A DNA stretch of 21,099 nt from positions 1 through 21,099 of the forward strand of contig JAFQIF010000175.1 in assembly GCA_017397695.1 (NCBI GenBank), given 5' to 3'. Source of the DNA: Clostridia bacterium (GTDB lineage Bacteria > Bacillota_A > Clostridia > Christensenellales > Aristaeellaceae). Shown here piece by piece: positions 2,871 to 21,099 of this stretch (position 1 is the first letter of the stretch; each line of letters starts with the position of its first letter). The translations under genes and the position numbers were made by a program. The notes under the pieces are model-generated. The model did no database searches, was not told where the DNA came from, and saw only the letters and a list, made by a program, of their open reading frames with translations.

Positions 2871-2896
2871 CGCTGTGGCTCCTTTTCTTATGCAGT

Positions 2897-3072
2897 ACGT
2901 TGGGGATTTCATCCCCAACCCCCTGACAAGGGACTTCGCCCCTTGACCCCATATACGCTTCGCGGCAGTTATAAGCAAATCATCATTTTCCCTCCGCTGC
3001 GCATACGCTCAGCGAAGAAGGGGTTCGGGGACAATGTCCCCGTGCAGGTCTGGGCGGCAGCCCAGCGTCCCC
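2897..3072. repeat. Hairpin-rich intergenic repeat, copy 1 (inverted pair)
   Basis: The spacer between argS and the DUF815 gene is almost all repeat. The left unit (plus orientation, 2897-2974) starts ACGTTGGGG, contains hairpins TTGGGGATTTCATCCCCAA (2900-2918) and CAAGGG/CCCTTG (2927-2945), and ends ACGCTTCGCGGCAGTTATAA. The right unit is inverted: read on the minus strand from 3072 it has CTGGGC/GCCCAG (3050-3065), CGGGGACAATGTCCCCG (3026-3042), then GAACCCCTTCTTCGCT. The right unit matches the left half of copy 3 (11522 onward), and the left unit matches copy 4 (17052 onward). No protein is encoded. Confidence 0.8.
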
Positions 3073-3086
3073 CTCGTTTCCCGTTC

Positions 3087-8236: not shown

Positions 8237-8355
8237 GGGAACGTTGGGGAACGTTAGGACTGCCGCCCTCAGACTCCCTTCTCTCGCTGCGCGAATCGCG
8301 CAGCGAGGGCGAATTCTGTTTCTTAATACCGGCGCGAAGCGAAGAAGGGTGCAGG

Positions 8356-8449
8356 GGATTGGAACCGAGCACGCCCAGTGGGCGAAACAGCGAGGTGGAA
8401 ATCGGAACTGCAAAGGAGCCCCCAAAGGCGACTATTGCGGTTCCCGGAT
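8356..8449 (+). repeat. Insertion element A with predicted RNA-like fold
   Basis: An 86-nt block (8360-8445) lies between direct repeats GGAT (8356-8359 and 8446-8449), a spacing of 90 bp. It interrupts the hairpin that is intact in copy 3 at 11622-11640. Internal structure: hairpin CGCCC-AGT-GGGCG (8372-8384), conserved CGAAACAG, then a ten-pair stem GGAACTGCAA (8404-8413) with TTGCGGTTCC (8435-8444) enclosing GGAG, a small hairpin and CGACTA. Same strand orientation as element B. Function unknown. Confidence 0.65.
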
Positions 8450-8473
8450 CAATGTCCCTGCCAGGGAAATGGG

Positions 8474-8569
8474 GGACCGAAGCCTGCTGCGTCCAGTGGA
8501 CGAAACAGGCAGGCGAAGCGTCGGGAATCGCAAGGAGCGCTTGCGCGACTATGCGAGTACCCCGGACCG
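8474..8569 (+). repeat. Insertion element B, diverged copy of element A
   Basis: This block lies between direct repeats GGACCG (8474-8479 and 8564-8569), again spaced exactly 90 bp. It interrupts the hairpin that is intact in copy 3 at 11648-11666. It shares with A the blocks ACCGA, CCAGTGG, CGAAACAG, TCGG, GGAG and GCGACTAT. Its fold has GCCTGC/GCAGGC (8482-8487, 8509-8514) around CGTCC-AGT-GGACG (8490-8502), and a second stem TCGCA/TGCGA (8528-8532, 8552-8556) enclosing GCGC-TT-GCGC. Function unknown. Confidence 0.65.
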
Positions 8570-8599
8570 GCGTCCCCATACGTATCATAAGGAGCCATT

Positions 8600-11521: not shown

Positions 11522-11677
11522 CACGTTGGGCTGCCGCCCAAGCCCGCTCGGAGCTATCGTTCCCGAACCCCTTCTTCGCTTCGCGGCAGTTTTAAGCTGC
11601 GTATTGCGCAGCCGAATGGGTGCAGGGACAATGTCCCTGCCAGGGGTATGGGAACGGCGTCCCCATTCGTCCCCCTG
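11522..11677. repeat. Hairpin-rich intergenic repeat, copy 3 (uninterrupted inverted pair)
   Basis: This is the clearest complete copy. The left unit (plus) starts CACGTTGGGCTGCCGCCCA with hairpin TGGGC/GCCCA (11527-11540) and runs through GAACCCCTTCTTCGCTTCGCGGCAG to TTTTAA. The right unit is inverted and carries GCTGCG/CGCAGC (around 11596-11612), GCAGGGAC-AAT-GTCCCTGC (11622-11640, perfect eight pairs) and ATGGG/CCCAT (11648-11666). It fills the space between the uvrA terminator and the reductase ribosome-binding site. It encodes no supported protein. Confidence 0.8.
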
Positions 11678-11707
11678 ATTGCAAAGAGAATATTTGGAGG
11701 TTCAATT

Positions 11708-17051: not shown

Positions 17052-17139
17052 CACGTTGGGCTGTGCCCGGGGACTGTGTCCCCGAATCCCTCGCAGGGGC
17101 ATTGCCCCTGCACCCCATGCTCGCTTCGCAGCGGTTTAA
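17052..17139 (+). repeat. Hairpin-rich intergenic repeat, copy 4 (single unit)
   Basis: One unit, not an inverted pair. It starts CACGTTGGGCTG as copy 3 does, has hairpins CGGGGAC-TGT-GTCCCCG (17068-17084) and GCAGGGGC-ATT-GCCCCTGC (17093-17111, perfect), and ends CACCCCATGCTCGCTTCGCAGCGGTTTAA. It aligns along its length with the left unit of copy 1, with paired changes in the stems. It ends three bases from the thrC stop codon. Confidence 0.8.
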
Positions 17140-17141
17140 AG

Positions 17142-18635
17142 TTATTTGACAGCGCTGAGCACGGCCTGCGCCATCGCGTCCCTTTCGCACACGCCTGTGT
17201 GGCGCACTTCCATCTCCGGCAGCTTGGCAATCTGATCCGGCTCACGCGTGCCGGTCATCTCGCTGAGCATCGCGCAGCAGGCAAAATCATCCTTGCCCCG
17301 GACAGCCTCGCTGCCCGCAATCGCCTCCAGCACGGACGCGCCGAACTTATACGGGCTGGCCGTGGATACGATCACGCTCGGGGTCTTGTCGCCGGTCTTT
17401 TCGACGTAAGCACGCAGCACCGCAGAAGCCACAGCCGTATGGGTGTCCATCAGGTAGTGCTCCTCCTGCCAGGTGCGCGCAATCTCCGCGCGGATACCGT
17501 CCTCATTCACATAGCCTGCGGCGTACTGCGCCTGAAGTTTCCTGAGCATATTGTCATCCACCTGGTAGCGGCGCTCAGCCTTAAGCTGCGCCATCAGATC
17601 GGCCACCTTTGCGCCGTCGCAGCCGCACAGATCAAACAGCAGGCGCTCCAGGTTGGAGGAAATCAGAATATCCATTGACGGAGAAATGGTCTTAAAGAAA
17701 TCGCGGCCGGAAATATCGTACGCACCGGTGTTGATGAAATCGGTGAGCACGTTGTTCTCGTTGCTCGCGCAGATGAGCTTGCCCACAGGCAGGCCCGCCT
17801 TGCCAGCATAGTCCGCGGCGAGGATATCGCCGAAGTTGCCCGTCGGTACGCAGAAGTTGACCTTGTCGCCCATCGCAATCGCGCCTTCCGCGAGCAGATC
17901 CGCATAAGCGGAGAAATAGTAGACAATCTGCGGCACAAGGCGGCCGAAATTGATGGAATTCGCGGAGGAGAGCACGCGGCCCTGACGATCCATCTCCGCG
18001 GCAAAATCCGGATCGGAGAAGATCTTCTTCACGCCGGTCTGCGCATCGTCAAAATTGCCCTTCACAGCAATGACATGCGTATTGCTGCCGCCGGTAGTCA
18101 CCATCTGCAGGCGCTGCGCCTGAGAGACGCCGCCGTCCGGATAGAACACGCAGCAGCGGGTACCCGGCACATCCAGGAAGCCCTCGAGCGCGGCCTTGCC
18201 CGTGTCGCCGCTGGTGGCCACCAGGATGAACACCTCGCGCTCCTCGCCGTGCTTTTTGCCGCTCATGGTCAGCAGGTACGGCAGCAGCTGCAGCGCCATA
18301 TCCTTGAAGGCCAGCGTCGGTCCGTGCCAAAGCTCCAGCGCATAGGCGCGCTCGCCCACCTTCACCATCGGAGCAATTGCCTCTGCATCAAAGCCGGTGC
18401 CATAAGCGCCGGCGATAGCCGCTTTCAGCTCTTCCTGCGTAAAATCCGGCAGGAAGCGGGCAAGCACAAAGAGGGCGCGCTCCTGATAGCTCATGGGCGC
18501 CAGCGCCTTGATTTCATCTGCGGAAAAGGACGGGAACGCGGCAGGCACATACAGGCCGCCATCGGGCGCGAGACCGCGCAGAATAGCCCTGGACGGGGAT
18601 ACAGCGGCAGCGCCGCGGGTGGAAAGCATCTGCAT
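17142..18635 (-). CDS. thrC: Threonine synthase
   Basis: This PLP enzyme converts O-phospho-L-homoserine to L-threonine, the last step of threonine synthesis. The product is 497 residues, the length of the longer bacterial ThrC class. It opens MQMLSTRGAAAVSPSRAIL and APDGGLYVP, the family N-terminus. The PLP lysine is K111 in GPTLAFKDMALQLLP. VATSGDTGKAALEGF (139-153), PTGNFGDILAADYAGKAGLPVG and SANSINFGRLVPQIVYY are strongly conserved. AGGAGG lies seven bases before the ATG at 18635; a frame open to 18728 crosses the promoter and is not used. The gene has its own promoter (18700-18728). No other threonine-pathway gene (hom, thrB) is adjacent, so the pathway is dispersed here or encoded elsewhere. 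Confidence 0.96.
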   Translation of the reverse strand: MQMLSTRGAAAVSPSRAILRGLAPDGGLYVPAAFPSFSADEIKALAPMSYQERALFVLARFLPDFTQEELKAAIAGAYGTGFDAEAIAPMVKVGERAYALELWHGPTLAFKDMALQLLPYLLTMSGKKHGEEREVFILVATSGDTGKAALEGFLDVPGTRCCVFYPDGGVSQAQRLQMVTTGGSNTHVIAVKGNFDDAQTGVKKIFSDPDFAAEMDRQGRVLSSANSINFGRLVPQIVYYFSAYADLLAEGAIAMGDKVNFCVPTGNFGDILAADYAGKAGLPVGKLICASNENNVLTDFINTGAYDISGRDFFKTISPSMDILISSNLERLLFDLCGCDGAKVADLMAQLKAERRYQVDDNMLRKLQAQYAAGYVNEDGIRAEIARTWQEEHYLMDTHTAVASAVLRAYVEKTGDKTPSVIVSTASPYKFGASVLEAIAGSEAVRGKDDFACCAMLSEMTGTREPDQIAKLPEMEVRHTGVCERDAMAQAVLSAVK

Positions 18636-19436: not shown

Positions 19437-21099
19437 ATGAAGAACATCCTGCGTGTCCTGGCGCTGTGCATGGTGCTGCTGCTGCCCGCCCTCGCGCTGG
19501 CCGGCGGCGAAACCGCCTGCTACTGGCAGCTGGAAGCCATCGAAGTGGACAACCAGGCAAGCGGCGCCTATGGCCCCGCCAGCGCACAAACCAGTGCATC
19601 CGCCGTCACGGAAACGGATCCTGCGGCGATGACCGAAATCGTGCGCGGCGTGAAGGACGTTACGCTTGATATCACGCGCGCCGCCGGCGGCTACAACGCC
19701 CACGGCGAATATACGCTTGCCGGCGTACCCGCCGTCGTTCCTGGCGCGGCGAGCGCCAGGCTGACCATCACCGCCAATACGAAGGCGGATGATCATTCCT
19801 TCTACCTCTATTCCTCCATTCTCGTGGATGGCCGCCGCACCCTGCGCGTGCGCAATACCGGCGCGTGGGTGCATCGCGTGTATTTCCCGCGCAAGGCAGC
19901 CGAGGGTGCTGAGCGCCGCATCACGCTGGATTCCCGCGAGATGCACGACCTCGTGCGCTCACAGGTCACGTATGTGTACCGCGCGCATCCAGGCGTCATG
20001 ATCGTCGATTCGACCGGCGACGTGGTCCTCTACGATCTGGACGGCAATGAGATCCAGCGCATCACCCAGACGGTGGACGATATCCTGCCTGTCTTCGCCG
20101 GCGCTTCCGCCGACGACGGCAAGACCATCTTCGCCGCCGAGGAGCAGGAAGACGGCTCCATGATCGTGCGCTATGATCCCCAGAGCGACCTGTCCGAGGA
20201 TGAGCTGATCCGTCTGATCCGCGCCGCAACCGCGGGCGAGACCGACGCTTCCTCTTCCGCCACGTTCGTTTCCTCCCTGGAGGCTGACGACGAGGATGCG
20301 ACCCTCTACATCGCGCCGAACACCGAGTTGTCCGACGATGTGCTGCGTGCACTGCTGCGCGCCGCAGAAGGCAAAGCGCTCAGCGTGGACGCCGTGTCCG
20401 ATGCGGTCAACAGCGGCGATGTGGCGCTCGTGGCCGAGCCCACCGCCACCCCTGCGCCGCTGACCTTTGCTCAGCTGCGCGAGAAGGCGCTTAACCCGCA
20501 GGCGTTTGAAACCCCTGCGCCGGACAATGCCGCGCTTTCCGAGACTGCCGAAGGCGCCGCTGCCGCGCAGGCACTGGTGCTCTACGACGATCATGGCGTG
20601 CAGGGCATCGTGCTCACGCCGGGCGCGCAGGCCACCGGCAGCGACCTGCTGGATACCATTGACAAGGTTATCAAGGCAGACGGCCTGAAGGATACCTTTG
20701 CCGCCACCTTTGGCGACGAAGCCACCGTGGACGGCGTGGTTACCGATGAGAAGAGCATCGAGATTGTACCCTCCGGCGCTGATACGGCAGGTCTGTATGC
20801 CGCTGCCGCCGGTTCCAGCACGCTGCTGAGCGTGATGCCGGGCAGCGTGGATGCGCTGCTGGAGCAGCTGGACGGCGCGTTGGTCGAGCTGAGCGCTACG
20901 CCGACCCCGACCCCCACGCCGACTCCGACTCCCACGCCGACCCCGACCCCCACGCCGACTCCGACCCCCACGCCGACTCCGACCCCCACGCCGACTCCGA
21001 CCCCCACGCCGACTCCGACCCCCACACCGACTCCGACCCCCACGCCGACTCCGACTCCCACGCCGACTCCGACCCCCACGCCGACTCCGACTCCGGAAC
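19437..21099 (+). CDS. Secreted protein with long Thr-Pro tract (cut by window end)
   Basis: 554 residues are visible and the frame runs off the right edge. It begins with a signal peptide, [22 protein letters not shown], cleavage likely after residue 22. Residues 23 to about 487 form a large extracytoplasmic part that I do not recognise; it is acidic, poor in Cys, and has low-complexity Ala/Asp/Glu-rich stretches and a short Pro-rich linker (EPTATPAPL). Residues 488-553 are an unbroken Thr-Pro tract, after which the frame reads Glu at the edge, so another domain or a wall anchor probably follows. Thr-Pro tracts commonly form stiff extended linkers, often glycosylated, in clostridial surface proteins. 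AAAGGAG stands eight bases before the ATG at 19437. Function unknown. Confidence 0.88.
20898..21095 (+). repeat. Tandem 18-bp repeat encoding (Thr-Pro)33
   Basis: Eleven units of ACGCCGACYCCGACYCCC, in frame, encode 33 Thr-Pro pairs. Units differ only by silent third-base changes (act/acc, one aca, and a final ccg). The near identity of the units suggests recent expansion by slippage or unequal recombination; it also makes the true copy number sensitive to assembly. Confidence 0.95.

What the first reader, a model, noticed from the sequence alone, without database searches (positions are those of the whole stretch)
8356..8569. Two related elements, each with 90-bp repeat spacing, inserted into hairpins of an intergenic repeat
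Copy 2 of the intergenic repeat (uvrB-uvrA spacer) matches the uninterrupted copy 3 except for two extra blocks. Element A splits the hairpin that copy 3 keeps intact at 11622-11640; element B splits the one at 11648-11666. Each lies between short direct repeats: GGAT at 8356 and 8446, GGACCG at 8474 and 8564. Both spacings are exactly 90 bp. Removing one spacing unit from each restores sequences close to copy 3 (GCAGGG-GATC-AATGTCCCTGCC, and ATGGGGGACCGGCGTCCCCAT). A and B are related and in the same orientation. This is the pattern of a tiny mobile element that targets hairpin loops and duplicates a few bases. No transposase is present, so a partner in trans would be needed.
Basis: partly seen in the sequence, partly recalled or inferred. 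Interest (0 to 1): 0.75.

Follow-up and report, generated by a model that had tools for sequence, protein, structure and literature searches.

The report
Self-nesting hairpin-tip DNA repeat
Some gut bacteria of the class Clostridia carry dozens of copies of a tiny gene-free DNA element that sits in the tips of other DNA hairpins, including its own hairpins up to three deep like Russian dolls, and the enzyme that would move it has not been found.

Summary
Elements A (8356-8447) and B (8474-8565) split two hairpins of an intergenic repeat between uvrB and uvrA. They belong to a family of ~90-100 bp two-hairpin repeats (model R1) with strong covariation: 24 of 29 pairs have changes on both sides.

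Eight relatives held 17 to 117 matches each. Matches occur in 39 of 150 genomes sampled from one family, 3 of 196 from its class.

Orthologous spacers differ: the window has both elements, relative G002 the same repeat with both hairpins intact; elsewhere the reverse. Eleven of 123 copies sit in a hairpin cap of the element's own type, two in three-level nests. An identical 94-nt inner copy lies in outer copies 75% alike. This supports insertion into hairpin tips.

The 'duplicated bases' are rejected: left and right 4-mers match in 21 of 91 copies versus 19.0 by chance, and the 5' bases pair inside the element. No Y1, IS110 or reverse-transcriptase gene is shared by the carriers tested. The mover is unknown; recombination between repeats also contributes.

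The parts
8356..8447 (+). Element A (R1 family member), inserted in the first (Y) hairpin of the repeat
   Evidence: read; R1 match 8356-8450, 83.6 bits, E 1.3e-16
8356..8403 (+). A, hairpin 1 (base GAT/ATC, conserved cap)
8372..8390 (+). A, cap CGCCCAGTGGGCG, its last G beginning the invariant GAAACAG
8404..8445 (+). A, hairpin 2 with conserved GGAG .. CGACTAT internal loop
8474..8565 (+). Element B (R1 family member), inserted in the second (X) hairpin of the repeat
   Evidence: read; R1 match 8474-8567, 105.4 bits, E 1.4e-21
8474..8522 (+). B, hairpin 1 (base GAC/GTC, cap CGTCCAGTGGACG at 8490-8502)
8523..8563 (+). B, hairpin 2
8351..8356 (.). Left arm (GCAGGG) of host Y hairpin; right arm GTCCCTGC at 8454-8461
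   Evidence: intact version at 11622-11640
8469..8474 (.). Left arm (ATGGGG) of host X hairpin; right arm GTCCCCAT at 8572-8579
   Evidence: intact version at 11648-11666
8237..8585 (.). Host repeat copy 2 in the uvrB-uvrA spacer (filled)
11523..11680 (.). Host repeat copy 3, both right-half hairpins empty; the corresponding (longer) spacer of genome G004 carries an R1 element (L233)
2894..3086 (-). Host repeat copy 1, hairpins empty; the corresponding spacer of genome G001 carries an R1 element in the X hairpin (L232)
17064..17142 (-). Host repeat copy 4 (half unit), no R1 match

Best explanation
A and B are two copies of a non-coding, two-hairpin DNA repeat of about 90-100 bp that spreads within genomes of one bacterial family by inserting into the tips of DNA hairpins. 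Shown: family, copy number, covarying structure, positions in hairpin tips, presence/absence between orthologous spacers, nesting in its own cap up to three deep. Inferred: it moves as folded single-stranded DNA, joined into the exposed loop of a hairpin without target duplication, by an activity supplied in trans (unknown recombinase, or the cell's own replication/repair machinery). Once in a host repeat it is further copied and shuffled with that repeat by recombination between repeats (junctions with the left flank of the Y hairpin and the right flank of the X hairpin suggest this).
For: Structure: 96.5% of 3349 cells paired, 24 of 29 pairs with two-sided changes, 0 of 500 shuffles as high. 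Matches at E <= 1e-3: G003 117, G001 77, G002 64, G004 45, G007 36, G006 30, G008 23, G010 17 (150 candidates scored per genome, so lower bounds). Presence/absence: uvrB-uvrA filled twice in the window, same repeat with both hairpins intact in G002 (L213), one element in G003 (L215), no R1 match in the other 7 of the 9 uvrA-upstream loci held; window copies 1 and 3 empty versus an element in the corresponding spacers of G001 and G004; G002 and G008 filled in opposite halves of one orthologous repeat; G007 filled versus G003, G002, G008 without. Nesting: 11 of 123 copies lie in own-type caps in six genomes, 10 beginning directly after GTG and one (L120) a base later; two of them are in three-level nests in G003. 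A further inner copy lies in the apical part of hairpin 2 of an element (L197). Identical 94-nt inner copies lie in outer copies 75% alike. Flanks form a Watson-Crick stem of 6 or more in 24 of 94 copies versus 3.9 (max 12 of 500 rounds) when re-paired. Both orientations occur in host hairpins. G.T and A.C mismatches are equally rare (40 and 39 of 3010 cells), which fits DNA better than a sense RNA.
Against: No candidate recombinase is shared by the carriers tested. No autonomous parent element was seen in the loci held (a limited scan). Host hairpin sequences differ between orthologous spacers, so gene conversion can also make filled/empty differences. With one fixed choice of element ends, removing it restores the expected empty sequence exactly in nested case L236 (by eye); most other sites I looked at are off by one to a few bases. 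An energy-based test of flank pairing was modest: mean -9.18 versus -8.11 (lowest of 300 re-pairings -8.91), and 33 of 91 at -10 kcal/mol or lower versus mean 26%, max 37%. Some of the 28 'other' copies of 123 are not obviously in a hairpin. 55 of 94 copies lie inside a stop-to-stop open frame of 130 codons or more; in such G+C-rich DNA this says little, but I had no gene caller to settle it. The genomes G001-G004 and most others named are metagenome assemblies.
Confidence: 0.6

Rival explanations
1. No transposition: A and B are optional tips of a large palindromic repeat, exchanged between repeat copies by homologous recombination and gene conversion; 'insertion' is only module swapping.
For: Orthologous hairpins differ wholesale in stem and loop sequence. 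Some copies carry the left flank of the Y hairpin and the right flank of the X hairpin (12 of 123 by a rough text rule that mislabels some), as recombination between neighbours predicts. An identical outer+inner unit occurs at different loci (L342/L344).
Against: Copies lie in their own cap loops, in hairpins of a 5S-like repeat and in a different CCTTC..GAAGG hairpin, where I see no shared host flank to recombine. Both orientations occur in the same kind of host hairpin.
Confidence: 0.25
2. Transposase-free spread: replication template switching at stalled hairpins copies one hairpin into the tip of another, making nested and covarying stems.
For: Stems are nearly perfect Watson-Crick (2870 of 3010 cells), as hairpin-templated correction would give; no common recombinase found.
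Against: In own-type caps the left joint is the same base step in 10 of 11 copies and letters in the internal loops are invariant in the 42-sequence alignment, which looks like recognition by a protein.
Confidence: 0.12
3. A structured non-coding RNA or riboregulator whose domains duplicate.
For: Strong covariation, conserved internal loops, GGA/GGA and GA/GA steps.
Against: No Rfam family at gathering score; G.T and A.C mismatches equally rare; no orientation bias to neighbouring open frames in a crude test; nesting would be expected to disturb an RNA's fold (inference).
Confidence: 0.08

Closest known systems
REP/REPIN elements with REP-associated tyrosine transposases (RAYT, TnpA-REP)
   Same: Short palindromes in many copies, two hairpins as the unit, folded single strand as the likely substrate, a GGAG tetranucleotide at the foot of a stem (compare the GTAG tag of REPs), no genes. 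Some REPs are reported inside palindromes (T. roseum GTAG-23, A. variabilis GTAG-15 dimers, H. neapolitanus CGTC-1 dimers; PMC3733652, section 7 read whole).
   Different: The tag is GGAG inside hairpin 2, not GTAG at an end; 11 of 16 carriers have no Y1 transposase match; recursive insertion in its own cap is not in the passages I read.
Insertion sequences that target REP palindromes (IS1397, ISKpn1, IS621 and others)
   Same: Palindromic extragenic repeats as the target (PMC1525189, passages only).
   Different: Those are insertion sequences with transposases; these are ~90-100 bp without genes, and 12 of 16 carriers have no IS110-type (PF01548) match.
MITEs
   Same: Small dispersed repeats that fold into secondary structures (70-300 bp; PMC3733652 background passage).
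   Different: No target duplication and no pairing of the two ends with each other; two side-by-side hairpins instead. That MITEs have terminal inverted repeats and target duplications is recalled.

Membership tests
REP/REPIN with RAYT | GTAG (or CGTC) tetranucleotide at one end of a palindrome (PMC3733652, passages) | tested here: not met
   Invariant tetranucleotide is GGAG at the foot of the apical stem of hairpin 2 (42 sequences); the commonest ends are GGAC.. and ..CCC followed by GGAT or GGAC
REP/REPIN with RAYT | A Y1 (PF01797) transposase gene in the genome | tested here: not met
   No match in 11 of 16 carriers, incl. G002 with 64 R1 matches; full length only in G006 and G007, partial (29-32 bits) in G008, G001, G003; metagenome assemblies may be incomplete
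REP/REPIN with RAYT | High copy number and hairpin-forming | tested here: met
REP/REPIN with RAYT | Extragenic position | tested here: inconclusive
   A and B lie between uvrB and uvrA; for the other copies only stop-to-stop frames were examined (55 of 94 inside one)
MITE | Terminal inverted repeats (recalled) | tested here: not met
   Two separate hairpins; the two ends do not pair with each other in the consensus fold
MITE | Target-site duplication (recalled) | tested here: not met
   21 of 91 4-mers identical versus 19.0 expected
IS110 / bridge-RNA derived element | DEDD transposase (PF01548) in the genome | tested here: not met
   4 of 16 carriers have a match, 3 over the cut-off
Retro-element / group II intron product | Reverse transcriptase (PF00078) in the genome | tested here: not met
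   match in 2 of 11 carriers
Known structured RNA (Rfam 15) | Match at gathering score | tested here: not met
   0 matches in the window; at a relaxed threshold four matches with E 0.87 to 9.9, all far below gathering score
IS200/IS605-type non-autonomous element | Excision as a single-stranded circle and rejoining | not testable with these tools
   needs reads or an assay

The most novel reading that the evidence does not exclude
A gene-free, self-targeting element class: each copy carries in its own hairpin cap the preferred insertion site for the next copy, so the family grows as nested hairpins (three levels seen) and also colonises the tips of other repeat families; its mobiliser is a yet unknown single-strand hairpin recombinase, or none at all.
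Probability: 0.4. Interest if true: 0.85.

Novelty: new variant of a known kind. Interest (0 to 1): 0.72.

Why it matters
Insertion at the tip of folded DNA, recursively and without target duplication, is a recombination outcome for which I found few described parallels. The conserved cap and the hairpin-2 internal loop give concrete bait sequences for finding the enzyme. The family is abundant (17 to 117 matches per genome in eight relatives), so it may shape intergenic regions and complicate assembly of gut Clostridia.

Tried and rejected
Y1 transposase as general partner: not supported. IS110 and reverse transcriptase: not supported. Known RNA family: rejected. Hammerhead-like reading of the cap (recalled likeness to stem II plus GAAA): dropped, no cleavage site or other core seen. 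Autonomous parent with hairpins 1 and 2 far apart: none recognised in the loci held (text patterns). The short core in viral contigs gave 90 stretches; by eye only L004, L055 and L080 looked related, and L373 looks like a coding chance match. Distant blastn of 8340-8590 found 2 plasmid records (best E 0.8) and 6 phage records, of which only MT838321.1 (E 9e-7, at the end of a human-faecal contig) is likely real. Orientation relative to genes used open frames only: upstream neighbour same strand 37, opposite 35, the rest of 94 without one; weak.

Rfam did not confirm the 5S likeness of the fragments in L125 and L170 (gathering) or L349 and L350 (E up to 1), so that name rests on my recall. Literature: the searches listed no title or abstract describing this element; the library is open-access only and I read passages of four papers and one section.

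Rows and counts: one search found 45 seed contexts; 44 were kept, 43 were distinct, and 42 went into the alignment (a truncated one and an overlapping nested one left out). One search used a hand-made list without repeated places of the same locus and without the short partial matches (94 distinct copies). Searches used 123 copies found by a text rule in the loci held, 85 used 91 after removing flanks over 80% alike; copies near a contig end were dropped. All over-represent the best-scoring copies of a few genomes. The site classes come from text rules and mislabel some rows.

Full report
What was checked. Both lie in the spacer between uvrB and uvrA, and both interrupt hairpins that copy 3 of the same intergenic repeat keeps intact. 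They share a core with two exact matches in the window, and each folds as two side-by-side hairpins.

The family. No genome is held for the window, so I scanned species genomes for CGYCCAGTGGRCGAAACAG. The matches include more than one repeat family sharing the cap. Those with hairpin 2 of the window type were aligned (42 sequences) and made into model R1. On 126 matches (119 distinct) from 98 chosen sources the structure, with a three-pair base added to hairpin 1, has 96.5% of 3349 cells paired. Twenty-four of 29 pairs have changes on both sides, and no measure was reached by any of 500 shuffles. That alignment was fitted to the model, which favours the structure; the MAFFT alignment of the 42 seeds gave 17 of 26 pairs with two-sided changes. 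Invariant letters lie in two internal loops: GAAACAG beside the cap, and GGAG with CGA..T in hairpin 2.

Copy number and range. At E <= 1e-3 the matches are G002 64, G001 77, G003 117, G004 45, G007 36, G006 30, G008 23 and G010 17 (150 candidates scored per genome). In samples scored with stricter filters, 39 of 150 genomes of the family have a match, and 3 of 196 of the class, one of them G002 itself and two weak.

Presence and absence. uvrA of the window is found at 82-88% DNA identity in nine of ten genomes tested, one of them over a part only. Its upstream spacer in G002 (L213) has the same repeat with both hairpins uninterrupted. In G003 (L215) one hairpin is filled. The other seven of nine loci have no R1 match. 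Window copies 1 and 3, empty, correspond to spacers with an element in G001 (L232) and G004 (L233; a longer spacer with other content). One repeat shared by G002 (L277) and G008 (L129) is filled in opposite halves. A G007 copy (L298) lies in a CCTTC..GAAGG-type hairpin of a spacer that lacks it in G003, G002 and G008. The host hairpins themselves differ in sequence between orthologues, so recombination between repeats is also at work. Several copies join the left flank of one hairpin to the right flank of the other.

Nesting. Eleven of 123 distinct copies lie in a cap of the element's own type, in six genomes; ten start directly after GTG of the cap and one (L120) a base later. Seven of these caps belong to R1 elements. 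Four belong to hairpins in fragments that look to me like the 3' half of 5S rRNA (recalled likeness, not confirmed by Rfam). L343 and L345 of G003 are three levels deep. L197 of G001 has an inner copy in the cap and another in the apical part of hairpin 2. An inner copy of 94 identical nucleotides lies in outer copies 75% alike (L342 and L343). Conversely, the same outer-plus-inner unit occurs twice (L342 and L344, outer pieces 98 of 98 identical) where the 200 bp beyond on each side align at only 60 and 66%, so composites spread too.

Hairpin tips as targets. Flanks form a Watson-Crick stem of 6 or more in 24 of 94 copies, against a mean of 3.9 (maximum 12 in 500 rounds) when right flanks are dealt out anew. 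A looser energy test is only modestly above control. Rough sorting of 123 copies gives 84 in hairpins of the host repeat (10 of them reversed, 12 with mixed Y/X labels), 11 in own-type caps and 28 elsewhere or unsorted.

No target duplication. Left and right 4-mers are identical in 21 of 91 copies against 19.0 expected. The left end pairs with the 3' base of hairpin 1.

Mechanism. G.T and A.C mismatches are equally rare (40 and 39 of 3010 cells; 34 and 25 without one pair that looks misaligned), which favours DNA over a sense RNA (inference). No Y1, IS110 or reverse-transcriptase family is common to the carriers tested, and in the family sample Y1 matches are no commoner with R1 (11 of 39) than without (44 of 111; tally). 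I infer movement of a folded single strand into exposed loops by an unknown activity in trans, followed by spread with host repeats through recombination. The strongest rival is recombination alone.

Known relatives. REPs inside palindromes are described in PMC3733652 (section 7 read; passages), and insertion sequences that target REPs in PMC1525189 (passages). REPINs and TnpA-REP (PMC3116915 and PMC8266576, passages) are the nearest working model, but two defining features (terminal GTAG tag, transposase gene) are not met here.

Noticed in passing
L125 (G001), L170 (G009), L349 and L350 (G003), L308 (G010): Repeated fragments resembling the 3' half of 5S rRNA, in L349 in tandem, contain the same kind of cap hairpin, and some carry an R1 element in it. 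Rfam gave no 5S match for L125, L170, L349, L350, so the likeness is recalled.
   Followed up: partly
L094, L104, L105 (Faecalibacterium) and L096, L132, L168 (SIG528 and similar MAGs): Other repeat families share the cap CGYCCAGTGGRCGAAACAG but have a different second hairpin ending in ..CGCAAGAG.
   Followed up: no
L266 1665-1732, L270, L323, L197: A repeat GAATCTCAG..TTGAGATTC in G001/G002 carries hairpin 2 alone inside another hairpin, so the two hairpins may move separately.
   Followed up: no
L174 near its end; L099: Units about 137 bp apart with pieces resembling a tRNA-Arg 3' end around the cap (likeness by eye).
   Followed up: no
L238, L242, L246, L249, L252, L256 (other genomes of the family): Divergent relatives with hairpin 2 of the form ..GA..GCAAAGGAG..CGACTATTGC..GA.., suggesting a larger superfamily.
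   Followed up: partly
window 20855-21094: 18-bp tandem repeat (CCGACTCCGACCCCCACG-like), about 9 or more units.
   Followed up: no
L004, L374, L375 (IMG/VR contigs); L091 (phage record MT838321.1, end of contig): R1 copies or a piece of one on contigs filed as viral; could be prophage flanks or misfiled host DNA.
   Followed up: no
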